64,000 nt of DNA from assembly GCA_026874595.1 (NCBI GenBank), contig CM049306.1:103925142-103989141 (forward strand), given 5' to 3'. This DNA is from Sipunculus nudus. Its lineage: Eukaryota > Annelida > Sipuncula > Golfingiida > Sipunculidae. Both the position numbers and the translations under genes were made by a program. Below the pieces are notes generated by a model. The model was not told the DNA's origin. It did not search any database and saw only the letters and a program-made list of their open reading frames with translations. Position 1 is the first letter of the stretch. Every line of letters starts with the position of its first letter. Positions 5,391-55,495 of the stretch are shown one piece after another.

Positions 5391-5442
5391 GTATCTTTGA
5401 TAAAACATCGAAAGTTGGATTTAAATACATAAACTGCTAGTC

Positions 5443-16275: not shown

Positions 16276-16922
16276 TCATGAGAGCTCCTGAGTTGATGTC
16301 TCTTCTGGAGTTGATACAAGAACGATTTGGCTGGGTTCACCAGATGATTCTGCTGCTAGTTTGACTAGATAGCTGTATACACTAGACTGGGACTCGTCCA
16401 TCTCACTTGTATCAATGACCACAGTCTGAGTGTGGCCACCGCTTCCATCATTCTCAATAACTGTCAAACCCTCCCTGGGCTCGACAGTGCTGCCCTCTGC
16501 TAGCAAAGTCTGCTCATGAGTGACTGCCTCTATAGTGACTACCTGATCTGTTATAAGTACTGATTCACTGCTGACTGACTCCATATCTCGGTCTGTTATG
16601 ACCACAGCACCAGATGTCATGTCCTCAATGTGAGTATTCAATGAACTCGCTTCATATATCTCCGAGCCAGTTGCTGGTGCTATCACCTTGACAACCTCTT
16701 TTCGAGTGGGCTCGTACAAGTTTGTATGAAGCTTGACGTGGCGGTGAAGACTTGCATGATCAGCAAATGTTTGAGGGCAGAACTTGCAGGTCAATGGGCG
16801 TTCACCTGTATGAGTGTTCATGTGTTCTGTGAGATACTGGGCTCTTGTGAAAGTCCGTGGACATTCTTGGCAAAGAAATGGCCTCTCTCCTGTGTGTCTG
16901 GGCATGTGTCGATCTAAATCAG
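16276..16922 (-). CDS. 15-finger gene, last coding exon 12 (end of 13, fingers 14-15, tail)
   Basis: 647 nt after TTTTTTCAG. ADLDRHMPRH completes finger 13. CQECPRTFTRAQYLTEH and CKFCPQTFADHASLHRH follow. The 150-residue tail is rich in Glu, Ser, Thr and Val, as in many activation domains, and ends at TGA 16276-16278. Confidence 0.93.
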
Positions 16923-25900: not shown

Positions 25901-28900
25901 CTCCTGCTATTCCTGAGAAATTATGGGTTAATGTACAGATGACCAATGACCCCGTACAAAAAAAGGTCAATGCAGGTGGCACCACCAATACCTGAATTTC
26001 ATATATGACTCATGTGACCAACACTGGCATAAAATTTGGTGATGATAGCTCCGGCCGTTTCTGAGACTGTCATTTTAGTGTGCTTTTTTGGACAGATGAC
26101 TAAGTTCAAATTCCTGTAACTCGGCCAAAATTCACCGAACTTGAACCATTCGAACAAATTGAGAGAGATGGTATAAAAGATTGTTTCTGTGAAATATTGA
26201 ATAATTTGGCTAGACAGTTTCGTCGGAGAAGATTTTTTTAAGGTTTTTAGCTTTTTCTCTAAAAAATCTAAGAAAATGCAGAATTTTTCAGATGGCTAAT
26301 TTTTTGCATTAAATTTCATGATGCTAGCTCCAGTTGTTTTCAAAATAGTATGGGTTAACGTACAGACGATGGACACTGCCACATCATCACATTAGCTCAA
26401 AGGTTCGCTAAAAATTACTACAGATGCATACTGAATGCAAAATTATAATACAGATACAACTCACTGATGGCAAAATCTTGAATTAAGTTGAGTATGGTTA
26501 TCAATTATTTATAATCAATGTACAGCCGTCTTTATATACCCACAGAGAGCTGTATACCTGTGATTGGAAACATTGCCTGGCATGAGGAATATCTAAAATC
26601 ATGAATCTACATTTTTTAAAAGCTTTTAAAAAAACATTCTTGTCAATATTAACCATAGATATCCTGAAATCTAAATGTCTATAGAGGCATGATGCAACGG
26701 ATGCTGATAAACTGGTGCCAGGCTAGATGTATCTGCTTCACACAGCTAACATATATGGTACAATGACTCAATTCAATCTTTATAATTCAGCCAAAATTCA
26801 TTCTTTGGAACCATAATAGACAATTATTATAAGAATTATTCAGGGAATTATTCTTGTAAAATATTAAACAAATTGGCCCCAGTGGCATCAGTCAAAAAAT
26901 GTTTTACAGGTTTATAACTCATATGGGAAAATACAGCAAAATGGCTAAGTTAAGCTTCCCATAATTCAGCCAAAAATCACTGAACCAAAACCATTTGAAC
27001 AAACTTGAATTATCAACATCTAAGGATAATTAAAGTGTGAGATTTAAGAATTTGGCCCAGTGGTTTTTGAGAAGAAGATCTTTGTAGCCACTGAGCTAAA
27101 ATCAGCTGTTACAGCATATGACTAAATTTAGCTTCTCATAACTCAGCCAAAAGTCACTGAACTGAGACCATTTGAACAAACTTCAGAAAGCACTACCTTA
27201 GGCTCATTTCTGTGCGATATTAAACAATTTGGCCATATGGTTTCAGATAAGAAGTTTTTTGTAGCAGTCAGTATGATGCAGGCACTGATGACCCCCCTAT
27301 AATAAAGGCCAATGCAGGTGGCGCCACCTATACCTCAAATTCAGATATGACTCACGTGACCAACACTGGCATAAAATTTGGTGATGATAGCTTCAGCCGT
27401 TTCTGAGACTGTAATTTTAGTATGCTTTTTTGGACAGATGACTAAGTTCAACTTCCTGTAACTCAGCCAAAAATCACCGAACTTAAACCATTCGAACAAA
27501 TTTGAGAAAGATTGTTCCAGGAATCATTTCTGTGAAATATTGGACAATTTGGCTGAACAGTTTCGGAGAAGAAGATTTTTAAAGGTTTGTTTGCTTTTTC
27601 CCTATAAAATTTAAGAAAATGCAGTTAGCCAAAAAATAAGCAAAATCCGATTGAGTTTTTTAGATGACTAATTTTTTGCATAAAATTTCGTGATGCTAAC
27701 TCTTGTTGTTTTCAAGTTAGTATTGGTGAACATACAGACGCCGGCCGACGGACGCTGGACGACGCCATACCATCGCATAAGCTGACAGGTTCGCTAAAAA
27801 TACAGGCTGCACCACCAGTCTGCAGGAACTGATGAAACTCTCCATGATCAATATGCATGCAAAAATTCATGGTGATCAATGCATTAGTTGTTCAGATACT
27901 GGAGCTTTTGTATCTAAGTTTTAATTATTTGGGGGGGGGGGGGTACTTAGGAACCCCATAGCTTGGAGGATATGGGTAACAGAGACCTACTTTCAGGTTA
28001 CCAAGGAGATTTTTCATGGACCTCCCTGCATGTCATGCTAGAAGATTCCAGGTCCAGCAGTTACAATTTGTGCCTGGTTAATGGACAGACAGACTAAAGG
28101 ACAAAGAGTGATCGCTATAGCTCTGATGACTTTCAGTCAGCCGTGCTACAAAATTTAAGTTTATTTCATGAAAAGTTACAACTGGGAGTTCACTTCAACA
28201 GCAACTTCCCTTAGCCAACAATAAAAAACTTACTTATCTTGTATTAGCACCATATTTTCTGGAACAGCCTGCATCTTGTGTTCTGTCTGTATGTGAACTT
28301 TGACCTTCTCTTGATCACTTCCCTCATACCCACACTTGGCACAGTAGTAGCGTTTTGGCTCTTTAGTACTTGTGTAACGTGGTAGTGATATGTGGGGATG
28401 CATTATCTTCATGTGAGCTGCAGAAAAAATTTCTTTTATCTCAGGTATTAGGTATTTAGGGGAAATTTACAGAAAAATCTTAAATGCAGTACAAACAGGA
28501 TGTAATCTTTAAGCATATGTGTAGGCTTACTAAGATGTTTGTCTGCTACAATAAAATAATGTGTCACAATATTTCAATATAAAAAAACGATCCAAGTCAT
28601 ACGTCCTGTGATCCTTACTGGCATCCTAAGATTCTCAGTTTTATAGTATTTTATTATTTGAAACAATCTTAAACTAATCATCAATACAGTGATATAGACT
28701 ATCAATTTGAATTAATTAATATTATAATTATAACAACTTAACATGTGAAGTGGAAATGAAAGAAAAAAACAAGTATTTAACAAAGTGGGATTAAATGCAA
28801 ATTGTTTAAAATTAGAATATACATGGAAGTACTTTTGCAATTATGTTCACCCGGGAAATTAATTTTTCTACACAGAGAGCACGATGTGCAGCAGATTGAT

Positions 28901-31900
28901 ATTAATACTGATTTCATGTTTATCTAGTACCAAATTATGGAAAATGATTTGCAGGAATTCTCCACCAGAGGGCATCATGACATAAAGGAGAACAATTTTA
29001 TATATGACTGTTGTGACAGGTCTTACTTCTGTAACTAGACCTGTGGGCCAAACTTTTCCCACAGACTTGACACACGATGCGTGCAGACTTTGATCTCCTT
29101 CCACCCTTCTTGGGAGGACTTGGAGTTGACTCTTCATTTAGCAGTTCCTGGTTCTCCTGATGTTCTGCCTTCACTATCACCACTTCTGTCACTGTCTTGT
29201 TACTTTCACTATTGGTGTCTCCTTCACTAGGCCTCTGTTCCTCCACAGTACTTGATAATGGTGGGAGAGAAATCTCAATGGTCTGAGCATCAAGTTGACC
29301 TGACACAGAGAAAAAATAAATAAAGTTGAGATAAAAATAAAATGAAAAATGTCATATACTGGATGTCATGAATGAAACTGTTTTTTCTAAACATTCTTAA
29401 AAATATTAACACCTATGTCTATTGTTAAACAGTACTGAAAAGTATAGATTAAATAAAAAAGCCACATATTACAATCTGCATTTTAAAGGTAATTCTCAGT
29501 GTCAGCATATGGCAAATTATCCAGGTATCCGAGCACATGACTGCAGATAATAATATCTTTATAAGTAAATTTTGCACTGTTTCCATACTGGTAGCTATAA
29601 ATTAATTTTCTAAAATAAATACAAATAATTTAATGTAAATTTCATTCCTAAAACTGTAAAAGTACATTGTTTATTTTTCTAATATTAAAGTTAATAATAA
29701 GTTATAATAAGTAAATTCTGCAAAGGCCTCCTGAAAATGTGCAACCAAATGACTGCCACAAGAAGCCTTCATACAGGCCTGTGTGTGTTTTATTTATTTA
29801 AAGCAACTTGTAATTATTTACAGTCAGACATGTCTTCTGCACTATAAAATATAATTATATTCAATAAAACAAAGCACCAAAATTCAGGATAGCTGAAATG
29901 TTTGTGACAAATATTTGTTATAATAACTTGTATTTTCCTAATAACCCAACAAAGGGATTAGATTTTATGATATTTTACAGTACTTAAATCTTTATATTGT
30001 TCATTCCTTCCACAAAGGTGGTTATATATATTCCCCTGTTTGCATGTTACTTTATCTGTTAATTATCAGTAGCAGAAGTAACAACTGTCAATACTGAAAA
30101 CAAGTGACCCATGGTCATGATGCTCAGCTGACTGGGAAGAGATTCGCAAAAGGAAATTTTATCATCAAAATGGTAGTATATACCCATTAAACTGAAGCAT
30201 CAAACAGATTAAACAACAGGCCAAGATTGTGTCTGTATTTATATATCTCAAAAATAGAGAAAAAATTCGTAAACTTTAAAAACTAGAATACGGGTAGTCA
30301 ACAAGTGACTAAATGTATCCGCCAAAATCAGAGTGGAATGGGTGAAGTGAGGCATGGATTGAGTGGCAAGGGGAAATAGAGTGAGGTGTGTTGCATATTA
30401 GCATGGATGTCTGCATCCTAAATGTGTATGTAGGTTGTGCCACCTACCACAAATCCAGAAAGCTGTCCAAGTTGTATACATATGCAAAATTTTAGGCAGA
30501 AAAGTCAAACCACTACATGTATATGAGTGATTTTAGCCCACGGCAGACAAACAGACAGACGCTGTGCAAAAATGGTTGCAGGTGGCCCTTCCAGTTTTGT
30601 GTATGATAAAGACCTATGTGAGATCCAAAAACACAAGCACAATTTGGCCCAATCGGTCAAATGGTTCGCGAGATATGAGCTTGGATGTCTGCAGCGTAAA
30701 CGAGAATGTAGGTGGAGCCACCTGTGATAAGATCAAGAAAGCTGTCCAGGATGTATAAACCTGCATAATTTTAGGCAATTATGTCAAACAGCTACAGAGA
30801 TGAGTGATTTTAGCCCACTGCAGACAAACAGACAGACCCTGTGCAAAAATGGTTGGATGTGGCCCCTCCAGTTTTGTGTATGAGAAAGACCTATGTGAGA
30901 TCTAAACACATGCACAATTTTGGCCCAATCGGTCAAATGGTTCGCGAGATATGAGCTTGGATGTCTGCAGCGTAAACTAGAATGTAGGTGGAGCCACCTG
31001 TCATAAAATCAAGAAAGCTGTCCAGGATGTATAAACCTGCAAAATTTTTGGCAGTTATGCCAAACAACTACAGAGATGAGTGATTTTAGCTCACAGCGGA
31101 CAAACAGACAGACCCTGTGCAAAAATAGTTGCAGGTGGCGCCACCAGTTTTACGATAAGAAAGAGCTATGTCAGATCTATACACATGCAAAATTTTGACC
31201 TGATCAGTCAAACGGTTCCCGAGATATGAGCTTGGATGTCTGCAGCGTGAACACGAATGTTGGTGGCGCCACCTATCAAAAAGCAAGAAAGCTATCCAGG
31301 ATGTATATGCATGCCGAATTTTAGGTGAATTAATCAAACCACTGCAGAGATATGAGTGATTTTAACCCATGGCAGATGAACAGATGGACACTGTGCAAAC
31401 ATGGTTGCAGGTGGTGCCACCATTTTTGTGTATGGTGTAAAGCTATCCAAGGGCTACATTTGTATTTATAAACAAGGGACCCATGGGTCACGGCGCTCAG
31501 CTTAAGCTTGAAATTTTTGCAAATGCAAAATATACTATTTTAATGTTTTTCATTTATATAAGCATATGAGAAGCTAAGAGGAAAGAGGCCCTCCAACTTG
31601 GTTATAGTAAAGTTCTAAATATATGATTGCAAACTAATACTCTGAAAAGACTGTCATGAAGAAAAACAGTAAAAGTTTTGAGATACTGTGATGCATATGA
31701 AAAATTAACAGATGGACAGGCCAGTGGACAGAATGGACTAATACCTTTATTTCACTTTCAAGGGAATAATGCATTTAAGTTTATATATAAGCCTATTATT
31801 TAAGCATATCCACTTTTTCCATTAAAATAGTTTTTATCTGATTAATTTTTTTTAATTAGAAGTTTTATAAATTTGTATTAAAAAATACTGAAAATATAAT

Positions 31901-34900: not shown

Positions 34901-37801
34901 AGATAACCACATCTTTAAAGGTCTCAAAAATAGAGAAAAAAATTCATAAAAATTTGAAAAAAAAACACAGGTGGCGCACCCAGTATGCAGATTCTGATGG
35001 AACACCTTATGAAAAAAATGTATGCAAAAAATTATGGCCATCAGTGTTGAAGTTATTGAGATAATGCAGTTTTTGTATAAAATTTTTCATTATTCTGGGG
35101 GGTATTTTGGAGCCATACAGCTTAAAGGATATGGGTAACAGAGACCTAATTTCAGGTTTCCATAGAGACTTTTCATGGGTCTCCCTGTGTGTCAACATTT
35201 ATGAAGATTCTAGGTCCAGTTGTTATGATTTGTGCCCTGTTAACAGATGTTCATATCTTTATAGGTCTCAAAAATAGAGAAAAATTTGTAAAAAAACCCG
35301 AACAAATACAGGTGGTGCCACCAGTCTGCAGAAACTGATAAAACACTCCATGATCAGATCCATGCAAACAATTATGGTGATCTCTGCATCAGATGTTTAG
35401 ATACTTCAGCTTTTGTATCAAAATTTCCATTATTCTGAGCTGTACTTTGGAGTGCCATAGCTCAAAGGATATGGGTAACAGAGACCTAATTTCAGGTATC
35501 CATGGAGACCTTTCATGGGTCTCCCTGTGTGTCAAGAATGAAGATTCTAGGTCCAGTCGTCACAATTTGTACCCTGTTGACAGATAACTACATCCTTAAA
35601 GGTCTCAAAAAAAAGGGGAAAAAAAAAAAAATACAGGTGGCACCACCAGTCTGCCTGAACAAATGGAACACCTCTTGATCAATATGTATGCCAAAAATCA
35701 TGACCATCAGTGTTGTAGATATTGAGATGTTGCAGTTTGTTTTTATCAAATTTACCATTATTCTGGGGGGTAATTGGGAGCCCCACAGCTCAAAGGATAT
35801 GGGTAACAGAGACCTTATTTCAGGTTTCCATGGAGACTTTTTATAGGTCTCTCACTGTGTCAAGAATGAAGTTTCTAAGTCCAGTCTTTACGATTTGTGC
35901 CCTGTTAACAGATGTTCACATTTTTAAAGGTCTCAAAAATAGAGAAAACAATTCGTAAAAAATCGAAAAATACAGGTGGCGCCACCAGTCTGCAGAAACT
36001 GATGAAACATCTCATGATCAATATGTATGCCAAAAATCATGACCATCAGTAATGTAGTTAATGAGATATTGAAGTTTTGGTATGAAATTTTTGACTATTC
36101 TAGGGGGTACTTTGAGGCCCCATACCTCGAAGGATATGGGTAACAGAGACCTAATTTCTGTTTTCCATGGAGATTTTTCATATGTCTCTCAGTGTGCCAA
36201 CAATGAAGATTCTAGGTCCAGTCTTTACCATTTGTGCCCTGTTAACAGATGTTCACATTTTTAAAGGTCTCAAAAATAGAGAAAAAAATTCGTAAAAAAT
36301 TGAAAAATACAGATGGCGCCACCAGTCTGCAGGAACTGATGGAACATCTCATGATCAATATGTATGCCAAAAATCATGACCATCAGTGATGTAGTTAATG
36401 AGATATTGATGTTTTTGTATGAAATTTTTGATGATTCTGGGGGGTACTTTGGGGCCCCATAGCTCAAAGGATATGGGTAACAGAGACCTAATTTCTGGTT
36501 TCCATGGAAATTTTTAATATGTCTCTCAGTGTGCTCACAATGAAGATTCTAGGTCCAGTCTTTACGAATTGTGCCCTGTTAACAGATGTTCACATTTTTA
36601 AAGATCTCAAAAATAGAGAAAACAATTCGTAAAAAATCGAAAAATACAGGTGGCGCCACCAGTCTGCAGAAACTGATGAAACATCTCATGATCAATATGT
36701 ATGCCAAAAATCATGACCATCAGTGATGTAGTTAATGAGATTCCATGTCCAGTCTTTACGATTTGTGCCCTGTTAACAGATGTTCACATTTTTAAAGGTC
36801 TCAAAAATAGAGAAAAAAATTCGTAAAAAATTGAAAAATACAGATGGCGCCACCAGTCTGCAGGAACTGATGGAACATCTCATGATCAATATGTATGCCA
36901 AAAATCATGACCATCAGTGATGTAGTTAATGAGATATTGAAGTTTTAGTATGAAATTTTTGATGATTCTGGGGGGTACTTTGGGGCCCCATAGCTCGAAG
37001 GATATGGGTAACAGAGACCTAATTTCTGGTTTCTAAGGAGATTTTGCATCGACCTCTCAAAATCCCAAATTACAAGATTCTAGGTCCAGCGGTTACGAAT
37101 TGTGCCTTGTTAATGGACAGACGGACGTCGGACAAAGAGTGATCGCTATAGCTCAGATGACTTTCAGTCAGCTGAGCTAAAAATTAACTTAACAATAACG
37201 TTGGGGATGGGAGTGACAATTGAACCGAAGAAGGTCCCATTAAATTTTGGGGCAAGTCCAGGTAAGATGGACAGATCCTGTAGGATTGCCTGGCCTTGAA
37301 TTGGCAGGGGTTTGTGCTTCATGGAGTGCCATTCTAGTTTGCAATCCAAGATTAAGGTTACTTGATTTTAGCCCTGGACCTCACCTGCCTCTTGTTGTTG
37401 AAGCTCTTTGTTTTTACCAGCCACCATGTTCTGCATCATACTCGACAGCTGTTTCCACTGCTCCCAGGCTTGTGCTTTCTGGTGGTCATCCATATTTTCA
37501 ACAAGTGATAACTGCTGTTCTAACTGTCAAACAAAAGCATAATGAAACCCCCAAAATGAATCAATTTCAGAAATCTACAGATTTCTAGGACTGTTCATGA
37601 TATTGTATCTGCAGACCTTTTTATATGATGGCTGTCCTCTGATCCATATATCTACTGCCACTACTGGCATGCAATGTAGGTAGTGCCACAAGTCTTGTAG
37701 TTGTACAATGGTTAGAACTAATTCAATTTCAATATGCATAATAAATTTCAGAATAATTCACACTGTCAGTCTGAGAAATATAGATAAATCATATAAAATT
37801 T

Positions 37802-37867
<66 letters not shown>

Positions 37868-38674
37868 TTACAGCTAGAGAAGAACAAAAGTGATCCGTAA
37901 TCAACTTTCTTTAAAAAGGTCAAAATTAAACCCTCATTAGTTCATAATAAATATGGAACTGAGCAACTGATTTTTTAATGTTCATTGTTAAAATTCTGAT
38001 CAACCATTTTTAACCTGGTAGAAACCTTGCTAACACTATCAATATATTAAAGATTGATGTATGACCCAAATTTTGTGAAAACACAATTTTAATTTCTAAT
38101 ACTAATTAGAATTATTATATTAATTATCAAATAATGAAAATGTTACCATCCTGTTCAGAGTATATTTTATTTAAATACTGAATGTAAATCTGAACATATA
38201 AAAATGTCATTAATATTAGTAAACTTTTTGTATGAATTCTATGTTCCATTCTGATTAATATAATTGGTTGCAAACATCATACATGTGATGATTCAATATA
38301 TCATATGAATAAATAAGAAATTTATAATGCACAGATTGAATTATGAATTTCAGAAATGAAAAATTATGTATGGAAATAAAAATTAAAATATCAACAAACT
38401 GATAAATAATTAAAGGCTGCTTTTGATATTATTATATTTAAAATTCTGGAATATATGTTTAAAAAGACAGAATCTTAAAATTTGTTAATAAAGGATAGAA
38501 TCTTTATTCCCCCCCCCCCCCCCCCCCCCCCCCCGCTTTTCACTTTTCTAGTTATTATCTGTTTCTTGGAACAGCCCTTCCAATCACGACTGTTATCCGC
38601 CATGCTTAATTTCTTACCCCTAACTGGAACTCTTGTAAAATTGTGTTTGCAGAACTTCCTTCGCTCTCCGCCAT
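16276..38674 (-). CDS. C2H2 zinc-finger protein with 15 fingers (12-exon gene)
   Basis: Coding join, transcript order: 38674-38618, 37523-37385, 29299-29027, 28417-28234, 23217-23168, 22382-22169, 21717-21647, 21076-20878, 20270-20182, 19784-19580, 17861-17659, 16922-16276. All borders are GT..AG and phases match at each junction. The total is 2331 nt, giving 776 residues. A short helical N-terminal segment with Gln-Ala-Trp spans about residues 1-66. A Glu/Ser-rich linker and basic patch (KKGGRRSKSAR) follow. Fifteen C2H2 fingers lie at about 140-626, five of them cut by introns, with several TGEKP-type linkers. A 150-residue acidic Ser/Thr/Val tail ends at QELS. It is probably a nuclear DNA-binding transcription factor. 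DNA target and orthologue are unknown. Large introns hold H4, H5 and H6. Confidence 0.85.
17659..17861 (-). CDS. 15-finger gene, coding exon 11 (fingers 11-12, start of 13)
   Basis: 203 nt. The joined linker reads TGEKPHK-CNVC, confirming the splice across the 77-bp array. Fingers CNVCGKQFAQLSSLRCH and CQICSKSFIQKSHLTLH, then CPHCDMKFYRK cut seven residues after the second Cys. Donor GTAAGT. Confidence 0.92.
18145..18194. repeat. AT-rich microsatellite in an intron
   Basis: Interrupted TA repeat in the intron between exons 10 and 11. Confidence 0.8.
18960..19640 (-). repeat. 77-bp tandem array copying the end of exon 10 and its splice donor
   Basis: Eight copies with donors at about 19031, 19108, 19185, 19262, 19339, 19416, 19492 and 19570 (period 77). 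Each carries about 49 nt of exon (the VHMRTHTGEKPHK coding end) plus about 28 nt of intron beginning with the donor. The copy at 19570 is the true exon end. The others lie downstream in the intron. Most keep GTAAGT, while one is ATAAGT. Confidence 0.93.
19580..19784 (-). CDS. 15-finger gene, coding exon 10 (end of finger 8, fingers 9-10)
   Basis: 205 nt between TTGTTCAG and GTAAGT: VHQKIHSGDKPY, CGTCGKRFRAKSNLQRH, CKECNRSFTVKRCLIVH, TGEKPHK. It ends two bases into the Lys codon of the linker. Length and phases equal exon 3 of the neighbouring gene (46979-47183). Confidence 0.92.
20182..20270 (-). CDS. 15-finger gene, coding exon 9 (first half of finger 8)
   Basis: 89 nt between CTCTGACAG and GTAAGT: a charged spacer (DSEQLDRDKKKDH) and CNICGKTFSTHGNMI. 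Finger 8 is completed by VHQKIH in exon 10. Confidence 0.87.
20276..20874. repeat. 25-bp minisatellite filling an entire intron
   Basis: About 23 copies of a unit like 'tgagatgcctgacattatcactgag' occupy nearly the whole 607-bp intron between exons 8 and 9, from just inside the donor to just before the acceptor. Copies vary by substitutions and small deletions. Confidence 0.92.
20878..21076 (-). CDS. 15-finger gene, coding exon 8 (end of finger 5, fingers 6-7)
   Basis: 199 nt. VHQKMH completes finger 5. Then CSQCQYESSLKSNLVRH and CKYCRLGFTSQDLLNQH with H-x4-H. The donor is GTAAGG after GAAAT. Continuing past it would hit TAA at once. Confidence 0.88.
21548..21665 (-). repeat. ~35-bp tandem copies of an exon end with its donor
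   Basis: Three to four copies of ACAACACAAGGGGTGCTACAAG plus a following GTATG/ACTCTGT segment. They start inside exon 7 and continue into its intron. Some copies keep a GTATG donor-like end and others have lost it. Confidence 0.85.
21647..21717 (-). CDS. 15-finger gene, coding exon 7 (first half of finger 5)
   Basis: 71 nt: KFDEPYVYHCEECGKSCP ending in CTACAAG before GTATGT. It is completed by VHQKMH in exon 8. The exon end is duplicated in the intron (see repeat at 21548-21665). Confidence 0.87.
22169..22382 (-). CDS. 15-finger gene, coding exon 6 (fingers 3 and 4)
   Basis: 214 nt. Fingers CKICKKGFSFRGNMLRH and CLFCPLTFTEKGSALKH are joined by EGSKPHK. Acceptor CTTCATAG, donor GTAAGT. Confidence 0.9.
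23168..23217 (-). CDS. 15-finger gene, 50-nt micro-exon 5
   Basis: Between TTATTTCAG and GTAAGT. It encodes TLNIESPPVMLSDKKI, a short spacer. Phases (2 in, 1 out) fit both neighbours exactly, and this is what identifies so small an exon. The preceding intron (23218-28233) contains element H4. Confidence 0.8.
23527..28148 (+). mobile_element. Helentron-like element H4 (long, internally arrayed)
   Basis: Starts ACAAGTGACCCAAGGGTC after an A. The closing hairpin (GCTCTGATGACTTTCAGTCAGC..GCTA) ends at 28148. The first 350 bp match H1. The middle (25500-27800) has a different unit of about 460-480 bp and the last 200 bp match the 337-bp unit of H5/H8. Internal ends reading GGTTCGCTAAAAA at about 26408 and 27794 suggest other insertions are nested here. 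It lies in intron 4 of the 15-finger gene. No coding capacity. Confidence 0.55.
25500..27800 (+). repeat. Diverged ~470-bp repeat units inside H4
   Basis: Repeated landmarks include GTCAATG(T/C)AGGTGGC(A/G)CCACC at about 25513, 25969 and 27309. Others are 'aactc(c/g)gccaaaattcaccgaac', 'accattcgaacaaa' and 'atttctgtgaaatattg(a/g)acaatttggct'. Spacing is irregular, with two partial units near 26930 and 27120. Confidence 0.7.
28234..28417 (-). CDS. 15-finger gene, coding exon 4 (end of finger 1, finger 2)
   Basis: 184 nt. It opens THMKIMH, which completes finger 1 with 12-residue spacing and H-x4-H. Finger 2 is CAKCGYEGSDQEKVKVH and H. Donor GTAAGT. Confidence 0.88.
29027..29299 (-). CDS. 15-finger gene, coding exon 3 (linker, basic patch, half of finger 1)
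   Basis: 273 nt with acceptor TCTGTGTCAG and donor GTAAGA. It encodes an acidic Ser/Glu-rich stretch, KKGGRRSKSAR, and the first half of finger 1 (CQVCGKSLAHRSSYR). Confidence 0.85.
30420..31440 (+). repeat. 280-bp tandem units of H5
   Basis: Units start at about 30429, 30711, 30989 and 31259, each with GGTGG(A/C)GCCACCT, 'aagaaagct(g/a)tccaggatgtat' and 'gagatatgagcttggatgtctgcagcgt'. Confidence 0.88.
31472..34016 (+). mobile_element. Helentron-like element H6 nested in H5
   Basis: Starts ACAAGGGACCCATGGGTC after an A and ends GACTTATAGTCAGCTGAGCTA before AAAAA. The flanks join as '..ctacatttgtat' and 'tttcctgctcggtcaaacggttcccgag', which is continuous in H8 near 54380-54430 (reverse). H6 therefore landed in an older H5. 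Body has duplicated 'aacttgaataaaa' to 'tggttttgatat(a/t)aggcagtc' segments. Same subfamily as H2 and H7. Confidence 0.8.
34629..37140 (+). repeat. 337-bp tandem units of H5
   Basis: Units start with CAGGTGGCGCCACCAGTCTG at about 34629, 34969, 35309, 35634, 35973, 36308, 36648 and 36842. The last step is only about 190 bp, a truncated unit. Shared landmarks include 'gtaacagagacctaattt', 'gaagattctaggtccag' and 'caaaaatagagaaaa'. Confidence 0.93.
37385..37523 (-). CDS. 15-finger gene, coding exon 2 (N-terminal helical segment)
   Basis: 139 nt between TTTGACAG and GTGAGG. It encodes a Gln/Glu/Met-rich helical segment with QAWEQW near its middle. Phase is 0 in and 1 out. The leftover G joins GT of exon 3 to give Gly. 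Confidence 0.75.
37800..37866. repeat. (AT)n microsatellite
   Basis: About 30 AT dinucleotides in intron 1 of the 15-finger gene. Confidence 0.97.
38509..38534. repeat. 26-base poly-C run (poly-G on the transcribed strand)
   Basis: Uninterrupted C run. On the gene's sense strand it is G26, about 85 nt downstream of the exon 1 donor. Confidence 0.97.
38618..38674 (-). CDS. 15-finger gene, coding exon 1
   Basis: Nineteen codons from ATG at 38674 in a good context (CACCATGGCG), starting MAESEG and ending FQLG in phase 0 at donor GTAAGA. A 26-C run lies about 85 bp into the following intron. The start is inferred, but phase and donor fit exon 2. Confidence 0.7.
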
Positions 38675-39237
38675 GGTGACGAATAGCTGTGATAAGATCA
38701 AAAGCGACAGACAGATCACAAACCCTGTTCACCAAGGTTATGCCTTGAAACCTTGCAGTAACCCAAGATTTTCAGCCATGGCCAAGATCGATCACGCTCG
38801 ATCTGACACCGTGCACCGCGGAGCTAGCCCAGTTTTGGCCTCAGTTTCGTAAATTTCCAACCCTTGCAAATAATGTTCCCTGTTATCTAATAAATTTGAA
38901 AATCTAAAGAACGCGAGATCAGTTGGATTAAAATGATGATTTTTTTGTGTGAAATGACAAAGGACAAAAATGCTATAAATACCCTGAAATGTTTTCACAG
39001 TTATGGTAAATGAAAATGAATATCGTTGAGAACTCTTACTATTTAATTTGTTTATAATAGAAATGATTTCCAAAAGTGATATCCAAACACAGTTTGTTCA
39101 TACTTTGCTTGATTGATGCAAATTTGCTTACGAAGCGAATTCTAAAAATGTGATGCTACAAATATGGCTGCTGTCAATTCGATGTCATGATCACTTTCTG
39201 AAACAGTTATGCCAGCCGGTTTTTAGTGACTTTGGCC
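38675..39237. promoter_or_regulatory. Probable bidirectional promoter between two zinc-finger genes
   Basis: These 563 bp separate divergent start codons at 38674 (minus) and 39238 (plus). The region has more CpG than its surroundings near the minus-strand start (CGATCACGCTCGATC, CACCGCGGAGC at 38789-38823). ATGGCGG at the minus start and AATATGGCTGC near 39160 resemble YY1-type sites. No TATA box stands out. Function is inferred from layout. Confidence 0.5.
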
Positions 39238-39312
39238 ATGTCTGTGGTGGTACACCAGCCTTTTGTTGATATGGAAGTAAACACAGGGTGCTTTCGACAG
39301 TTTAAAGATTTG
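39238..39312 (+). CDS. 8-finger gene, coding exon 1
   Basis: Twenty-five codons from ATG in GGCCATGTCT, ending FRQFKDL in phase 0 before donor GTACGT. Support comes from phase 0 match to exon 2, position opposite the neighbour's first exon, and F at -4 from the junction in both genes. The start was not confirmed by transcript. Confidence 0.62.
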
Positions 39313-42300: not shown

Positions 42301-45300
42301 AAAAGGTCAAACCAGGCAGCATATAAAAAAAAATCAATAGAAGTGCAAGATTGCTGCTGCCTTTGGAGCGTAGATGTCACCAAAATACATTCACAAGCAT
42401 AACTGAACTACTATATATATATATATTATACATGTCAGTCAACCCTCAAAACACAACTTGCCCTGCCCTATTCCTCGAATATAGATTTCTATATTACACT
42501 TAATAGGGAAAGGCCACCAGGAAATATCCTGAATTGCTGATCATACATAGTTCCTTTTGCTATTTAGGCTTTAAAGGGGATCTAAAGCTTTGCATGTATT
42601 AAATTAATTAATTCCTCATATGATGAGCAATGCATGCATCATCCTCAGCATATACACAACCAAGCAGCACAATGATTACTAGGCACAAAACATGTTTAAG
42701 TATGAGTTTTTAGCTCAGCTGACTATAAGTCATCTGAGCTACAGTCATGGTCCATTGTCCGTCTGTCCATCCATCTGTCCGGATGTCTGTCCGTAAGACT
42801 GGCACGTTTCAACACCATTGGACCTATGAATCTGAAATTCGCCATACAGTTAGATGTCCCCAAAATCTCCTACCATGCCGAAAATTGGGTCAATAGGACT
42901 TCGTTCCTTCGAGATATTAAGGAAAAACCTCAATTTTTTATTAGAAATCTATTTTCGCAATTCAGGACTGCCTAATATCAAAACCACTCATCTGGTTTTC
43001 TTCATATTAACCATAAATATTCCTCTATATAGTTCCTATGTACATGCCATTTTTATACCAAAAATTAGATCAAAAGATGTTAATTTTTTTAAATATTGGC
43101 AAAAATATAAAATTGGTACCTTAAATTTTGCTGAAGTTTGACCATGGCACTTTTTTTTCCTGTAAGTACTGTGGATTTAATTTTCACAGCATGTTTTTGT
43201 TAGCATTTTGTCTGTTAACACCAAAAATTTGAAACCAGTTGATCAAAAACTGTAGATTTTATTTAAGTGTTCAAGCACCATGTCACATCAAGTTTACATC
43301 AAGCTAGTGTTATGCTGTTTGCTAGAGCTCAGCTCCCGAGCTTCAGCTCTAAGTTCCTTAAATTTAGCATACAGTTAGATGTCTCCAAAATCCCCTATCA
43401 TGCCAAGAATTTGATCACTAGGACTTAATTCCTTCGAAATATTAATGAAAAACTTAATTTTTCCATTAAAAACCTATTGTTACACTGTAAGACTGCCTAA
43501 TATCAAAACCACTGATCTGACTTTGATCATATATAATATACATATTTTTCTATACATTCTCTATGCACATGCCAGAAATGATGTCAGTATTGCGTAATTG
43601 TTTTAAGTAATGGGCCCAAACATAATGCACTTTTTTAAAAAAATCAAGTTATTGGTATAAATATAAAATTAGTACCTTAAATTTTGCCAAACTTTGACCA
43701 TGGCACATTTGTTTCCTGAGAGCACTGTTGATATAGTTTTCATATCATGCACACATAAGGATTTCATCTTTGTAGTTTAGAAAGCTGAAAGAAATTGGCC
43801 AAATATTATAGCTTTTATTAATGTTTTTATGAGACCGTGTCAGACCCAGGCTTAATCCAGCCCCTCTTCAGTCACCTGTATGTTGACCTTGTTGACCTTT
43901 CATTAGATTATGCATGCTTGAGCGAAGCATACACTGGGGCAGCCAGGCATCTAATGCCCAGCCACTGTTGATCCAGGTGTCCAACCAAACTCATCTAGTA
44001 GTTGTTTTGAAGAACAACATAACAATAAACAATAAATTAATAATTTTTTATAACAAATTAAAGAAAAATTAATAGAAAAGGAATTTGTTAGTTGATGAGT
44101 AACAGAAAATTAACTTGCAGTTACTGATGATGTAAGTATTTTGTATGGATGGATAGAATGTCAGTGTCAATGTTATTCCAGATAACACCATGCAGTCACC
44201 TATGGTATTTTTCAGTGAAATTTTAATGATAAAAAATAAATCATATTATTCATTACTAATCATTAGGGATCATATGAAGGAAATTAATGATAGACAAAGA
44301 TGCAGTTGATAATATTAATCTAGATTCCTACTGTGTCTAGTGTGTAGATTGATGTGAAAGTAGTCCAAAGTGAATATATTACATTTATTTTTTTAATATA
44401 AATAAAAGCCATAAAACCAGGTACTTCTGATCATTATTTAAATTTGTGAATTTTGTATATTCTGGATTCTCAACATCTTTGTTTGGCTAAAAGTGAATAA
44501 ATACTAGACATGATGCGAATGCTTTTCAAATGTACTTGAATACGAATATGAATATGTAATGCATTAAAAAAATTTATTGCATAAGAATGGGAATTCAGGT
44601 AAAAATGAAAGTATTTGAATACCAGTGCAGATACTTTCAAAATGTATTCATGAATGCATTCATGAATGTATTCTATAATATTATTTCAACAATCATTTCA
44701 GTTATTTTATTTTAAAAAATCATATGATTTTCTTATTATTTTTTTAAATAAAATTATATTGGCACAATATTTGTTATTAAATTTTAATAAATAGTTAAAC
44801 TCTTTTATTATATGTGCTGCTTATAAGTTATATGGCCAAGTCAAAATCTGTGTGACAATAGCACTCCATTTGTTAATAAAATAAATGAAATCAGTCCTCT
44901 TCCCTGTCTCCAAAGATACTATCAAAATCATACATAAGCTAAACACCAACAACTCATAATAAAGCCTATATTTATAACCACACAAAACAAGCATGTGCCT
45001 CTTTCCCAAATCATATTTTTTATCATATATAACAGCTGAGCGCCGTGACCCATTGGTCCCTTGTTAACACTTAATTCTTCTTCAGTTTGTAGATGATTTA
45101 GTTCTTATTTTCATGAACTGTCTTGTACATTTTTGATGATATCAGCTCTTTATCTTTTTTTATTTATGTAGATAATCCAAGCAGTGTTGCTGGCCAAGAA
45201 TTTGCCAACAGAGGAACATCTTCAAGCTTGGATGCTGTATCATTCCTGTAAACAGCTGCTTCTACAGCTCTTCAGCTCATCAGGATTTCCGTTGGAGAAG

Positions 45301-48300
45301 GAACAAGGAACGCAGTATCATGAAGACAATCTAACAGACCCAGCACAGGCTTACACATGCTCCACAAAGTCTGATCCTCATAAAACACTTGTGGCTAAAG
45401 AAGATGTCAGGGGAAGTGAAACAGCAGAGCCAACCCAACCTAAAGACAGTAGACAGCCTGCAAGAAAGAGGGGCAGACCAAGAAAGTATCCCATCCAACC
45501 AGCACCCAAAGGTATCAGTGATAACAAAGATATTAAATCACCAGATGTTATCAGTAAGATAAACTCAAACAAGGGGTTTGATTTAAAAGATTCCAGCAGC
45601 ATAGGTTGTGAGCAGCATCAATCAGATGACTTGCCAGCATTGTCAGTGCATGGTCCAGGTGATGTCAACACAACTGATGGATTGGTCTCTGTCAGCTGCT
45701 GTACTACTACAGTGACATCTAGGACTGGTGATGTTGATGTCACAAACAGTAAATCATCCAAAAAAGGCATTTCTCTTTGTTCAGCTGAAAGCCTGCCAAA
45801 GAGCACCTTCAAGCATATAGAGAATGGTTCCAAGAGAGATGACTCTGATGAGGACAAAGATGGGAAGTTACAGGCATCAGACACTGGTCATTCAGATATT
45901 ACAGTGAATGACATTACTTTAGTTCCAAATACTCTTGGTTCCAAGGAAGATTCTTTTTTACAAACTCAAGAAAATCAAACCAGAAAGTCCAACAGACAGA
46001 GGAAGAAAACAAAGAAGGAGATCTGGTTTTTGATCCCCAAGAAAACCCAAAGAAGCCAAAGATCTGCAGCTACGGAAAAGAAAAATGAACCAAATACTAA
46101 ATCTGTGAAGTTGAAAGACAGAACAGTGAAAGAAAAGAGAAATGAACCAAACAGCAAATCTGTGACATTTAAGGAGAAAACAGTGAGAGAGAAGAAGGTT
46201 ACTACTGTAGAAAGTCTGACCTGTAAGCTGTGTGGCAGGGTGCTAGGCAATGCCTCCAACCTCAGAGGTACTGTGATCTGTTTAGGAACTACTAGTGTGC
46301 TGTCTGTAATAATTTCGGGGTTGCATATTTTTAAAATGTTATCTTTCTTTTAGGGGAAACTTCTTTTAAACTCCTTTCTTACTTGATCAGCTTTTTAAAA
46401 CTTTTTTGCGTAGATATCTTCAAAATTGTAATTTTCACCTGAAAACACTTTTCAGAACATTTTAATTATTAGCAACATTATGCTTTGTTCTCAAGTGTTT
46501 GACAATTTTACTGGAAATATGAAATACTGAGGACTAGAAACTAACCTTACAACTCCAAATGTCCTCCCTGGAGCTTGTTTTGAGAATCAAATACAGCAGA
46601 ATGTTATGCAAGTTAATACCTCAGTAAAGATTTTTTTTTTTTCGCATATTTAAAAAAATATTTTTCTCATAATATTTTTGTTACTATTTTTTCATAAAAT
46701 CCAAAGAGGAAGCTCTTTTTGTTTTCATGTTTGCAGTTTTCAAAGCTGTTGATATTAAAACAAGGTTGTTATATCATTCATTATTCATTCTGAATGATTT
46801 TTTTTAATGTAAGAAAATAGGTAAACATATGACACTTAAAAAGAGTGCATCTACACATGTATGTCACTTAATTATAACCATCTTAATTGTATTTGTCACA
46901 CAGTTAAACTTAATCCATAATAATAATATTATTTCACTTTCGGTTCACTGTATATAAAGTAAGATGCATTGTTTGCAGTTCATATGAGAAGTCACAGCGG
47001 TGAAAAACCACACAAATGTGGATTCTGTGAGAAGTCGTTCTCTACCATTACCAACAGGAGGCGCCATGAGCGGGGCCATAAAGGAGAAAGACCATACAAG
47101 TGTTCCACCTGTGAAAAAAGTTTCACTGAAAAGAAAACACTTACCATACATGAACGTATACATACAGGAGAGAGGCCTTTTAAGCGAGTTCCTTTAATTT
47201 TTTCTGTGATGGGTCAGCTTTAAAAATTTATCACCTGCAACTTAACAACAGACACTTTTGCCATTAAATGATTTAAGTCAGATTTCTGAAAATGATCATC
47301 TTCCTGATAGCCCAGCCTCTGGCTCAGTCATGCAGAGACCTTTCTTCAGCGGGCCTCCTGGCCTGATATCACATGGATTTTGACCTGGCATGCAGGTGAT
47401 GATGCCCAAATCATGACCAACCAAATCACTGCAAAAGTTAATGGTACACATTGTTTGCATGCTTAATCATTAAGGGAACAAATGCACCAGAACCTCATCA
47501 GGTGTAGAACTAGCCAATGATTGGTCAGATTCTGTTAATGCTGCCGATAGCCAGACAGGTGATTTAAAAGTAGCAACAGATTTACTTTGCGGTCCACCTG
47601 ACTGGTTTAAATTCTTTTATAATAATTCATGAAATAGCGCGCACATTTGAGCAAGAGACCTGGCTCTCAGGAAGATGTATACAATACTGCTAGACCTGAC
47701 GTTATCTATAGATGCATTCGAAATAAAAATCTAGGGACCAGATTTTTTTAGGCATCCAACATTTATATTTTATGACACATACCAGTATGATGTATTTCAT
47801 GTTAACATTTTATCTAAATGCAGATTTTTTGTGTAAATCTAAAACTTCTCTCTCAGGTTTAACCAAGGTTTTTACAGAAAGCACAAGTAGTTTTAATTAT
47901 TGGTATGTATTTGCTGGAGTGATTAATGTTGATATTTAGATTGATTTTTATTTTCTGTATTTCCAGTATTTTTAAACCCAGGGGGGACATTATTGCAGAT
48001 TTGTTTACCAATTGCCCACCAGAGGGCTGCACAATCTGATCATGAAGCACTCATGATATGTAACCATTTACAAAACACAATGTGTGACATAGATCCCATA
48101 TGAAATGTGGGTGGTTATACTCAGTTGCTCAGTATAATAAAATACAGAAAATCCTGAATGTTTATTCATTTACTTGTAGTCTACAGAAACAACAACACAA
48201 TTTGAAGGAGCTTTGTTTCAGGGCATATTTTGATGATTACTATTTTGCTTTTCAGTTGCCCAGTTTGCCAGAAAACCTTCTCCCACCCGTCAGCTTTGAC

Positions 48301-50856
48301 GATGCACAAGTTGGTCCATGGTCAGGTGAAGAGTCACCTCTGTGAACTTTGTGGTACTTCATTCACACAAAGGTCACAGCTTGTAGTACACAGAAAGCGA
48401 CACCACGACCCTGACAGACCACCGCCAAGAAGTAGAAGGAAAACACATGAGTGCCACACATGTCATAACAAGTTTCCTGACAAGTGTAAGTTATTTTATA
48501 AATACATCATGGCACCATATCATCCGGACCCAAGTACATGTCTTCACATAATTATGTTATCCTAAGTGCAATGCCTTATTACCTAAATGTAAATTATATT
48601 TTATAGAACTTTTTTTGTTGATGTAGCTGCCTCCATTTTTACATACAAAACCTTAAAGGTGCTTATTCACATACCTTTTGAAAAAGAATTTATTTGATTT
48701 ATGGCTTCCTTTGTGTATATATTCCTGAACTAAGGGTAATTCTGTTTATGAAAAGTTTTATAAGGCCTCCTTGAAGGATGTAACTATCAACAACATGTTT
48801 GTAAACACAGCAATGTTTACAAATGGGAAAAACATGCAACTTAAGGTGGTAGGCTGCATATATGCAGAGGTAGAAAGGTCACTTGTTGCAAAACGCCATT
48901 ATCAAAGCTCTGGCTTATTTGACTCGCTGGCCTATTTTCATAATAGCTCCCAGGGATTACCTTTACTTTATAAAGGTCAGACAGGTGATCGGGCTACTTT
49001 AACAAATCTTACATATATGTTATTTGTGTAGGCTTCTATTGAGTAATGTGCCAGTGTTGTACCTTCTTATCAGAGTATATGCAATCCAGGTGTTACCCTA
49101 AGCCAATCAACTCTGGTTTAACCACACTAATAATAATATGCCACTGTTTCCTCCCAGAAAGAGCAGTTGTGCTTATCAAACAGCCTGTCATCTACTGTTA
49201 TCTACTGACATAATCATGTTCTAGATTGAATTGGGGCATGCCGCATGCCCATTATCAAGGAGTTCAATATAAAAAAATAAAAATATAAATTATCATTTTT
49301 TGGTACAAGATGAATTATTCAAATGTGAATCCCATGTTTCAGCACTGGAGATAGCTCTTTATAAATAATTATTAAATAAAAATTGTATCAAAATCACCAG
49401 TGCATGAGCTATAGTCATGTAATTTGTTCAGAATTTAGTATTCAAATGCCATCACACATTTTACTTTTAAATGCTTAATGTTTCAGTGACCTTGCTGCTG
49501 CATGAAGTTGGCCACCAGGAGGAGCCACCCTACAGCTGCAAGTTGTGCATCAAAGCATTCAGTGAGAAGCAGCATCTGACTGAGCATTTAAAGCAGAACC
49601 ATAAAGCCTTGAGGTATACATGTACAGTCTGTTCAACCGCATTCCCATCCCACGCAACATACCTGAAACATCAGGACCTGCACATACAAGAACAGGAAAC
49701 TGAAAAGGTTGCACCAACATTATACCAAGTGATGGTACCAGCAGAGAATACTGACACTGTGACTGCCTCAGACCTATTGCCAACAGCGTCACTGCTGCCT
49801 GCCACAGAAATAAAATCTGAGGATCCTGGTGACCTTGTGGACCAAGTTAGTTTAAGCTCAGCTAAGATATTTGAAGGCGATTATGATAAGTTAACTTTAA
49901 CATCAGATACAATCCGTATGGCAGCAGTACAGGCAGGACTTCAAGTCAGCAAAAAAGGTTTGGTGATAGGTGCCACTGATCTGGTCAGTGCGGTGAAATT
50001 ACAATTAGACTGTGCCAGTGTTGGTAATCTGAGCACAGTTGATGCAGCCAGCTGCCTTATTAAGTCAGAGAGTCTTGCACATAGTGGGTATACAATAAAC
50101 AGTGATATTACAACTAAGATAGAATCAACTGATTTATTCAATAGATCCTCATGTCAGTATGATGAAAGTGCAAACAGCACTATACCTACAGCAGCAAATA
50201 CAAAGGAGCCACCATTGGCTTCTTCAAAAACTTTAGAAAAATTACTCACTTCTTCATTACACCCAGTTTCAGTACAGAAGAGCTACAGTGTTAATCCATC
50301 AACAAACTCTGTTACTCCAGGAAAGGAGCACAGCAGTTCAAACATCCAACAAAAGCATATGCTTCCGAGTAATAAGGGGGCAACACATATTTTTATTTCT
50401 GACATATCAGGTGTACGCAGTTCTGGAAATAAAAAGCAAACATTTTCAACAGTAGAAGATATTAGTACAAATTCTGGCTACCCTGAAATAATTTTTAACA
50501 CTCAACAGAAGTATAAAAGTTTGGTACAAGAACAGGATCCCACTGCTGACACCATTTTATCAGGCTCTGTCAGTGTGGATGGCTGCCAGACAGTGGTCTG
50601 TGAATCTTCTACATCAAATACTAACTCATTACAGGGATCCTCGGGAAATGCTGTGGCATTATCATACACTCCCGATTCATCTGAAATTCTCACTGCTTTC
50701 CAGTTTCAACCAGATATTACTGAAACCTTATCAACTGGTGAGACAACCACTGTTGCAGTCCCGTCAGAAGCCTATGGTTCCAGTTTTACAGTGATGCCCA
50801 TTGAGACTTCTGGTTCTGTCCAGTATGCTGTTATCTCAATGGAAGAACCCACATAG
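39238..50856 (+). CDS. C2H2 zinc-finger protein with 8 fingers and an AT-hook (5-exon gene)
   Basis: Coding join: 39238-39312, 45172-46267, 46979-47183, 48256-48485, 49487-50856, total 2976 nt, giving 991 residues. The N-terminal segment with Gln-Ala-Trp (residues 1-60) resembles the divergent neighbour. A low-complexity Ser/Asp/Lys region follows, with AT-hook RKRGRPRKY (about 123-131) and a duplicated 19-residue basic module (about 327-364). Eight C2H2 fingers lie at about 375-601. A 390-residue Ser/Thr-rich, mildly acidic tail ends at EEPT. It is probably a nuclear DNA-binding regulator; target unknown. Phases agree at all four junctions. The intron after 47183 must be GC-AG. The first intron holds element H7. 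A poly(A) signal lies at 51432. Confidence 0.82.
39313..42710. other. First part of intron 1 of the 8-finger gene
   Basis: AT-rich sequence without a supported gene. It includes the poly-G run and a perfect palindrome CCTGGTATACCAGG near 41393. Short open frames (40503-40706, 41854-42060) have no support. Confidence 0.5.
40856..40876. repeat. 21-base poly-G run
   Basis: Uninterrupted G run in intron 1 of the 8-finger gene. Confidence 0.95.
42711..45064 (-). mobile_element. Helentron-like element H7 in intron 1 of the 8-finger gene
   Basis: Hairpin end TAGCTCAGCTGACTATAAGTCATCTGAGC.. starts at 42711 after TTTT. The 5' end (reverse of ACAAGGGACCAATGGGTCACGGCGCTCAGC) finishes at 45064 before T. 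At 2354 bp its first half closely mirrors the 3' half of H6, with the opposite orientation. The 95-codon frame at 42854-43141 is repeat sequence. Non-coding. Confidence 0.77.
45172..46267 (+). CDS. 8-finger gene, coding exon 2 (helical segment, AT-hook, basic repeats, half of finger 1)
   Basis: 1096 nt after TTTATGTAG and before GTACTG. It opens IIQAVLLAKN..LQAW, has AT-hook core RGRPRK (45466-45483) and a tandem 57-nt duplication at 46075-46188 (EKKNEPNTKSV / EKRNEPNSKSV), and ends in CKLCGRVLGNASNLR. Finger 1 is completed by VHMRSH in exon 3. Confidence 0.87.
46979..47183 (+). CDS. 8-finger gene, coding exon 3 (end of finger 1, fingers 2-3)
   Basis: 205 nt after TTTGCAG: VHMRSHSGEKPHK, CGFCEKSFSTITNRRRH, CSTCEKSFTEKKTLTIH, TGERPF. 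It ends two bases into the linker codon. The donor is GCGAGT (GC type), and no GT nearby keeps the frame. Length and phases equal exon 10 of the 15-finger gene. Confidence 0.87.
47184..47189 (+). promoter_or_regulatory. Predicted GC-type 5' splice site
   Basis: CTTTTAA|GCGAGT. Splicing here to TTTTCAG at 48255 gives TGERPFN-CPVC, a correct finger linker. The only close GT (AAGCGA|GTTCC) would put the next exon in a frame without cysteines at finger positions. Confidence 0.72.
48256..48485 (+). CDS. 8-finger gene, coding exon 4 (fingers 4-5, start of 6)
   Basis: 230 nt: CPVCQKTFSHPSALTMH, CELCGTSFTQRSQLVVH, an Arg/Pro spacer (DPDRPPPRSRRKTH), then CHTCHNKFPDK cut seven residues after the second Cys. 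Donor GTAAGT. Same layout as exon 11 of the neighbour, with nine extra residues. Confidence 0.9.
49487..50856 (+). CDS. 8-finger gene, last coding exon 5 (end of 6, fingers 7-8, long tail)
   Basis: 1370 nt after TGTTTCAG. LTLLLHEVGH completes finger 6. CKLCIKAFSEKQHLTEH and CTVCSTAFPSHATYLKH follow. The tail is Ser/Thr-rich with scattered acidic residues, like many regulatory domains. Stop TAG 50854-50856. Confidence 0.92.
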
Positions 50857-54135: not shown

Positions 54136-54454
54136 ATTTTTGTATCCGCCAAAACGAAGTTTTGCGGATACTATGTTTTTGACCGAGTTCCTCCACCGTG
54201 GCGGCGTTCCTTTCCAGAGAGCTCCTCAGAGACTAATGGACCGATTTTTCCCAAACTTACTCCTATTATCGGGTCACATGTGAACTGGTGCCTAACCAAT
54301 TTGCGTTGACCTCTGACCTTTCCTCTCTATCCAGTGACCATTTGTGGGTCTGTTTCCACTCATAAACCCTCATATCTCGGGAACCGTTTGACCGATCAGG
54401 AAATAAAATTGATACAAATGTAGCCCTTGGATTGCTTTATAACATACACAAAAA

Positions 54455-55200
54455 ATGGTGGCGCCACCTGTAACCATGTTTGCACAGTGTCCATCTGTTC
54501 ATCTGCCTTGGGTTAAAATCACTCATATCTCTGCAGTGAATTGACTAATTCACCTGAAATTCGTCATGCGTATACATCCAGGATAGCTTTCTTGATTTTA
54601 TGACAGGTGGCGCCACCTACGTTCACGCTCACGCTGATGACATCCAAGCTTATATCTTGGGAACCGTTTGACCGATCAGGTAATAAAATTTATACAAATG
54701 TAGCCCTTTGATAGCTCTGTAACATACACAAAAAATGGTGGCGCCACCTGTAACAATGTTTGCACAGCGTCTGTCTGTTAGTCTGCCGTGGCCTAAAATC
54801 ACTTATTTCTCTGTAGTGGTTCGACATAACTGCCTAAAATTTTGCAGGTTTATACATCGTGGACAGCTTTCTTGATTTTATGACAGGTGGCGCCACCTAC
54901 ATTCTAGTTAACGCTGCACACATCCAAGCTCATATCTCAGGAACCATTTGACCGATTGGGCCAAAATTGTGCATGTGTTTAGATCTCACATAGGTCTTTA
55001 TCATACACAAAACTGGAGGGGTTACCTGCAAAGATTTTTGCACAGTGTTTGTCTGTTTGTCTGCCATGGGCAAAAATCGCTCATATACATGTAGTGGTTT
55101 GACTTTTCTGCCTAAAATTTTGCAGGTGTAAACAACTTGGACAGCTTTCTGGATTTGTGGTAGTTGGCACAACCTACATACACATTTAGGCTGCAGACAT
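54455..55200 (-). repeat. 280-bp tandem units of H8
   Basis: Palindromic GGTGGCGCCACCT landmarks near 54458, 54606, 54739 and 54885, homologous to 30420-31440 in reverse. Confidence 0.88.
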
Positions 55201-55495
55201 CCATGCTAATATGCAACATACCTCACTCTATTTCCCCTTGCCACTCAATCCATGCCTCACTATCCGATTTTGGCAGATACATGTAGTCACTTGTCGGTTA
55301 CCCGTATTCTATTTTTAAAAGTTTACACATTGTTCTCTATTTTTGAGATATATAAATACAGACTAAATCTTGGCCTGTTGGTTAATCTGTTTGATGCTTC
55401 AGTTGAATGGGTATATACTACCATTCTAATGATAAAATTTCCTTTTGCGAATCTCTTCCCAGTCAGCTGAGCGTCATGACCCATGGGTCACTTGT

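What the first reader, a model, noticed from the sequence alone, without database searches (positions are those of the whole stretch)
38618..39312. Head-to-head zinc-finger paralogues sharing a 563-bp promoter
Two large C2H2 genes diverge from start codons 563 bp apart. Their last three coding exons have the same phases and the same finger split points: within a finger just before the first His, at the second base of the linker codon, and seven residues after the second Cys. One exon is 205 nt in both. This suggests an inverted duplication followed by finger gain or loss (15 versus 8) and possible co-regulation.
Basis: partly seen in the sequence, partly recalled or inferred. Interest (0 to 1): 0.8.

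Follow-up and report, generated by a model that had tools for sequence, protein, structure and literature searches.

The report
Old back-to-back zinc-finger gene duplicates
Two zinc-finger genes sit back to back with their start codons 563 bases apart, and matching intron positions suggest they are old mirror-image duplicates that differ by a block of seven fingers; this is a tidy but ordinary kind of gene pair, and their joint control is not yet shown.

Summary
Gene A (minus, 12 exons, 776 aa, 15 C2H2 fingers) and gene B (plus, 5 exons, 991 aa, 8 fingers) start 563 bp apart. Their last three introns lie at identical nucleotide offsets (+46, -1, +34) from the first Cys codon of the equivalent finger, and a 205-nt exon is in both. 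I add that intron 1 is phase 0 in both and that the peptides starting at exon 2 are weakly but specifically alike in register. Finger sequence alone does not prove paralogy: other finger arrays of the genome outscore B against A, and a finger tree does not pair fingers in order. The intron map carries the case. A's seven extra fingers correspond to exons 4-9: 807 nt, phase 1 to phase 1, whose gain or loss keeps every finger whole. Most likely this is an old inverted duplication, now diverged, with both promoters packed into 563 bp. That interval has raised CpG for the window, consistent with a promoter; shared regulation is inferred, not shown. New member of a known kind.

The parts
38618..38674 (-). 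Gene A exon 1 (ATG at 38674; 57 nt, ends phase 0)
   Evidence: in-frame stop upstream
37385..37523 (-). Gene A exon 2 (139 nt), coding the N-terminal region that matches the start of B exon 2
29027..29299 (-). Gene A exon 3, ends just before the first His of finger 1
20182..28417 (-). Span of gene A exons 4-9 (28417-28234, 23217-23168, 22382-22169, 21717-21647, 21076-20878, 20270-20182): 807 nt of coding exon, phase 1 to phase 1, the block with no counterpart in B
19580..19784 (-). Gene A exon 10, 205 nt, counterpart of B exon 3
17659..17861 (-). Gene A exon 11, 203 nt, counterpart of B exon 4
16276..16922 (-). Gene A exon 12 with stop, counterpart of B exon 5
38675..39237 (.). 563-bp interval between the start codons, putative divergent promoter; CpG observed/expected 0.81 against a tile mean of 0.32
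39238..39312 (+). Gene B exon 1 (75 nt, ends phase 0)
45172..46267 (+). Gene B exon 2, 1096 nt; ends just before the first His of finger 1
46979..47183 (+). Gene B exon 3, 205 nt; followed by a GC donor
48256..48485 (+). Gene B exon 4, 230 nt
49487..50856 (+). Gene B exon 5 with stop

Best explanation
Genes A and B are old paralogues formed by an inverted (head-to-head) local duplication of a multi-exon C2H2 gene, or by a tandem duplication followed by inversion. They encode poly-zinc-finger proteins, probably DNA-binding regulators of transcription. Afterwards a block equal to A exons 4-9 (807 nt, phase 1 at both ends) was lost from B or gained by A. Because both ends cut a finger at the same point before the first His, the 15-finger and 8-finger forms both keep every finger whole. 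A second change, loss or gain of A's intron 2, is also needed. The two genes now start from one short interval that probably holds both core promoters. Shown: gene anatomy (from sequence), intron coincidence, in-register exon 2 match, 563-bp spacing, raised CpG. Inferred: common descent, direction of the block change, divergent transcription from the interval, shared regulation, DNA binding.
For: Three of three introns in the equivalent eight fingers have identical nucleotide offsets; a placement model gives about 2e-7 for free placement and about 0.004 even if only 24 sites were usable, best of 8 registers. Intron 1 is phase 0 in both. The first 30 residues of exon 2, aligned from its first base, score 33 against a shuffle mean of -20.6 (SD 11.3), reached by 1.5e-5 of 200,000 shuffles, and rank 1 of 330 offsets. 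In BLASTP with B as query, A is the best of 41 subjects (40 other arrays of 8 or more fingers, some from one frame, plus A): 181 bits against 166 for the next, in the register that the introns predict. That register is best of 8 by two scores; ordered pairing beats permutation at 0.0015 and 0.007. The genome's probable CTCF gene has its fingers in one unbroken frame, so these intron sites are not universal among finger genes here. CpG observed/expected in the interval is 0.81, reached by 4.6% of 563-bp tiles.
Against: With A as query, the other arrays listed score 238-266 BLASTP bits against 180 for B, though those longer arrays align with more of A's 15 fingers; with A fingers 8-15 as query, other arrays reach 198 HMMER bits. 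A background-corrected score put register 0 above register 7 (34.5 against 28.7; permutation 0.0097). The finger tree pairs 2 of 8 in order. C-terminal tails show no similarity, and a local alignment of exons 1-2 is only modest (0.013; exon 2 alone 0.003). Exon 1 scores -12 in end register. Exon 2 identity is 15%, and neither exon 2 query finds the other gene in the genome search. A's intron 2 has no counterpart in B. No inverted DNA repeat of the 5' regions was found beyond short matches and one dispersed repeat. No transcript data.
Confidence: 0.7

Rival explanations
1. A and B belong to an old class of intron-split C2H2 genes that share these intron sites by deep descent, and came to lie head to head by rearrangement, not by local inverted duplication.
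For: A itself repeats the same intron site three times (fingers 1, 5, 8), so the site may be recurrent. Divergence is great (about 37% identity over the fingers) and no mirror DNA of the genes was found.
Against: Adjacency at 563 bp in a 1.43-Gb genome is unlikely by chance (inference). Exon 2 queries found no third relative in the genome. The one control gene read, a probable CTCF, has no finger-splitting intron.
Confidence: 0.2
2. Not special paralogues: two generic C2H2 genes with coincident introns inserted at favoured sites.
For: Other arrays match either gene about as well as, or better than, the two match each other; finger tree unordered.
Against: Three coincident introns in order with one exon of equal length, plus the exon 2 match.
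Confidence: 0.08
3. The 563-bp interval is not a shared promoter: each gene starts from its own upstream untranslated exon or an independent core promoter. This can hold together with paralogy.
For: My motif scan found no clear shared core element; the one TATA-like match at 38974 is about what composition gives (my estimate).
Against: CpG is raised from about 38.4 to 39.6 kb (0.52-0.90 in 200-bp windows); in-frame stops lie just upstream of both ATGs.
Confidence: 0.3

Closest known systems
Head-to-head gene pairs with bidirectional promoters (about 10% of genes, transcription starts under 1 kb apart; PMC4089025, abstract seen)
   Same: Divergent genes with start codons 563 bp apart and an interval of raised CpG
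   Different: Transcription starts and co-expression unknown here; the two genes look like paralogues of each other
KRAB-type poly-finger genes (PMC2865497, two passages seen: fingers of the genes in that cluster all in one exon)
   Same: Tandem C2H2 fingers, several with TGEKP-like linkers
   Different: Fingers split over several exons; no KRAB domain among Pfam hits
CTCF
   Same: Multi-finger C2H2 protein; among the PDB sequence hits of both genes
   Different: 15 or 8 fingers, split by introns; the genome has a separate CTCF-like gene on C11 with its fingers in one frame

Membership tests
C2H2 zinc-finger proteins | Repeated C2H2 finger domains | tested here: met
   Pfam zf-C2H2 E 1.4e-55 (A) and 3.4e-24 (B); 15 and 8 fingers
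Head-to-head pair with bidirectional promoter | Divergent genes with transcription starts under 1 kb apart | tested here: inconclusive
   Start codons 563 bp apart; transcription starts unknown
Head-to-head pair with bidirectional promoter | Both genes driven from the interval, co-expression | not testable with these tools
   No RNA or reporter data
Paralogue pair from local inverted duplication | Shared intron positions and phases | tested here: met
   Identical offsets +46, -1, +34; intron 1 phase 0 in both. A intron 2 is not shared
Paralogue pair from local inverted duplication | Each other's closest sequence relative in the genome | tested here: inconclusive
   A is B's best of 41 subjects, but other arrays outscore B against A
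Paralogue pair from local inverted duplication | Residual mirror-image DNA around the centre (expected only in a young pair, so not required) | tested here: not met
   8 inverted matches link the two gene spans, all within 32615-34020 and 42707-43771, a stretch that also matches other loci
KRAB zinc-finger genes | KRAB domain and fingers in one exon | tested here: not met
   No KRAB hit at E up to 0.001; fingers split
CTCF | CTCF orthologue | tested here: not met
   The best genome match to a human CTCF finger fragment is elsewhere, C11:67037581, 69% identical

The most novel reading that the evidence does not exclude
Finger number in this family changes by whole exon blocks cut inside fingers: introns just before the first His of fingers 1, 5 and 8, all phase 1, let a block such as exons 4-9 drop out or be added in one step, fusing the front half of one finger to the back half of another. 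B's first finger would be such a hybrid. For it: its front half scores best by BLOSUM with A finger 1 (41, against 37 for finger 8) and shares the rare Leu in place of Phe (0.8% of 756 fingers), and its back half has an SG(E/D)KP linker like A finger 8. Against it: by identity information A finger 15 is slightly ahead for the front half (13.1 against 12.7), and the back half scores higher with A fingers 10 (51) and 14 (43) than with finger 8 (40). An old divergent pair would thus preserve both forms.
Probability: 0.35. Interest if true: 0.45.

Novelty: new member of a known kind. Interest (0 to 1): 0.3.

Why it matters
In the capped lists, the finger arrays outside the window lie in open frames of 247 residues or more, many on one contig (C16). 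This pair is of another sort: intron-split, diverged, and still 563 bp apart. If synteny shows that it is old, it would be a clean case for asking whether a shared promoter keeps transcription-factor duplicates together, and how finger number evolves by intron-bounded blocks.

Tried and rejected
Finger phylogeny as proof of paralogy: tried, not informative at 23 residues. A background-corrected finger score was dropped as main evidence because it rewards shared non-canonical residues in any register; its result is given against the reading. Rfam on the window: 0 matches at gathering threshold. Mirror-image repeats at 32954-33550 / 43051-43648 (92%) and the 337-bp and 276-bp arrays looked like traces of a palindrome, but the three stretches that I tested (32615-34020, 34373-36741, 30395-31434) match other loci, so they are dispersed repeats; the remaining pairs were not tested. 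Mollusc haemocyanin domain PF14830: no match in the genome, and the control genomes gave none either, so no conclusion on 'mollusc'. Nine paper searches listed no title or abstract start that reports a head-to-head paralogous zinc-finger pair of this kind; these cover only the held library, those terms and the rows listed.

Full report
What is there. I rebuilt both genes from splice signals and reading frame. Gene A runs on the minus strand from ATG 38674 to the stop ending at 16276: 12 exons, 776 residues, 15 C2H2 fingers. Gene B runs on the plus strand from ATG 39238 to the stop ending at 50856: 5 exons, 991 residues, 8 fingers. The gap between the start codons is 563 bp. All introns are GT-AG except B intron 3, which is GC-AG. 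In-frame stop codons precede both ATGs. The Pfam hits at E up to 0.001 are all zinc-finger families.

Intron map. Measured from the first Cys codon of the equivalent finger, A introns 9, 10 and 11 and B introns 2, 3 and 4 lie at +46, -1 and +34 nt. A exon 10 and B exon 3 are both 205 nt. Intron 1 is phase 0 in both. If introns could fall anywhere in eight fingers, three coincidences in the best of eight registers have a chance of about 2e-7; if only 24 sites were usable, about 0.004. This simple model ignores site preference beyond that bound. Not shared: A intron 2, and the length of B exon 2 (1096 nt against 139 + 273 in A).

Ends of the proteins. The first 30 residues of exon 2, aligned without gaps from its first base, score 33, matched by 1.5e-5 of 200,000 shuffles and best of 330 offsets along B. 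I had seen the resemblance by eye before testing, and the register is the natural one because both exons begin there. Local alignments were weaker: 0.003 of 2,000 shuffles for exon 2 and 0.013 for exons 1-2. Identity over 46 residues is 15%. The first exons do not align (score -12), nor do the C-terminal tails. Genome searches with either exon 2 peptide found itself and otherwise only matches with E above 4; neither found the other gene, so the similarity is weak.

Finger sequences. BLASTP of A against B gives 180 bits at 37% identity in the predicted register, against 116, 111 and 59 bits in others. With B as query, A is the best of 41 subjects (40 arrays of 8 or more fingers from the 50 loci then held, some from one frame, plus A): 181 bits, next 166. 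With A as query the other arrays listed reach 238-266 bits, above B's 180, though they align with more of A's fingers; with A fingers 8-15 as query other arrays reach 198 HMMER bits. Permutation of finger order gives 0.0015 (BLOSUM), 0.0074 (identity information) and 0.0097 (background-corrected; in that score register 0 was higher than register 7). In the finger tree B4 and B5 of 8 have the expected A finger nearest. So the fingers lean towards ordered homology but do not prove it.

Are such introns common? I could not make a census. The genome search favours unbroken arrays: with A's fingers as query, A's own exons are not among the rows shown (capped list). In the rows shown the places outside the window have open frames of 247 residues or more; a few are shorter (115-159). 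The one gene that I read as a control, a probable CTCF by 69% identity to a human finger fragment, has its fingers in a single 989-residue open frame. The finger genes of a human KRAB cluster have all fingers in one exon (PMC2865497, two passages seen).

Finger number. A exons 4-9 add up to 807 nt and run from phase 1 to phase 1. Removing them from A would leave eight fingers with B's intron offsets. The front half of B finger 1 fits A finger 1 best by BLOSUM (41; finger 8 scores 37), and 0.7% of 756 background fingers do as well; by identity information A finger 15 is slightly higher (13.1 against 12.7). The back half scores higher with A fingers 10 and 14 than with finger 8. So the hybrid-finger reading is only suggested. 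A's exon pairs 7-8 and 9-10 have like architecture (71+199 and 89+205 nt); the matching finger triplets rank 5 of 55 triplet pairs, so an internal module duplication is possible but not strong.

The interval. GC is 37%, CpG observed/expected is 0.81 against a mean of 0.32 for 563-bp tiles, reached by 4.6% of them. A TATA-like match at 38974 is about what composition would give by my estimate. The inverted repeats shown around the interval (25 of 50) are AT runs and short, imperfect, AT-rich matches. Of 52 longer inverted matches in the window, 8 link the spans of the two genes; all 8 lie in 32615-34020 and 42707-43771, and that stretch also matches other loci, so it is a dispersed repeat, not a trace of the duplication.

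Verdict. Old inverted duplicates are the best reading, mainly on the intron map (0.70). Shared regulation is plausible and untested. Head-to-head pairs are common (about 10% of genes, PMC4089025, abstract seen), and duplicated finger genes are common too (general knowledge), so the finding is an ordinary member of known kinds, with a tidy example of finger-number change by an intron-bounded block.

Noticed in passing
18969-19632 (minus strand): A 77-bp unit, 8.6 copies, repeats the last part of gene A exon 10 with its 5' splice site; five further GTAAGT sites and one GTAGGT follow the true donor. Reading past the true donor meets TAA at once, so use of the copies would end the protein.
   Followed up: partly
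21554-21671 and 20297-20865 (minus strand): Tandem arrays also begin at, or 12 bp after, the donors of gene A exons 7 (36 bp x 3.3, copying the exon end) and 8 (25 bp x 23). Three of 11 introns of A thus start with arrays.
   Followed up: partly
47184: B intron 3 has a GC donor (aa|gcgagt) where the equivalent A intron has aa|gtaagt.
   Followed up: yes
30395-31434, 32615-34020, 34373-36741, 42707-43771, 52176-55156: Repeat families, two with 276-bp and 337-bp internal arrays, occur in opposite orientation on the two sides of the gene pair; the three left-hand stretches also match other loci.
   Followed up: yes
46075-46196: A 57-bp coding repeat, 2.1 copies, within gene B exon 2.
   Followed up: no
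55436-55903: Open frame that resembles the end of a non-LTR reverse transcriptase (recalled resemblance, not searched by protein).
   Followed up: no
G000 contig C16: Many C2H2 arrays in long unbroken frames are listed on one contig, C16 (capped lists).
   Followed up: no
L087:1330-4299: A CTCF-like gene of this genome has its fingers (11 by my count) in a single 989-residue open frame.
   Followed up: partly
5425-6192: Open frame of 255 aa rich in charged residues, probably an exon of another gene.
   Followed up: no
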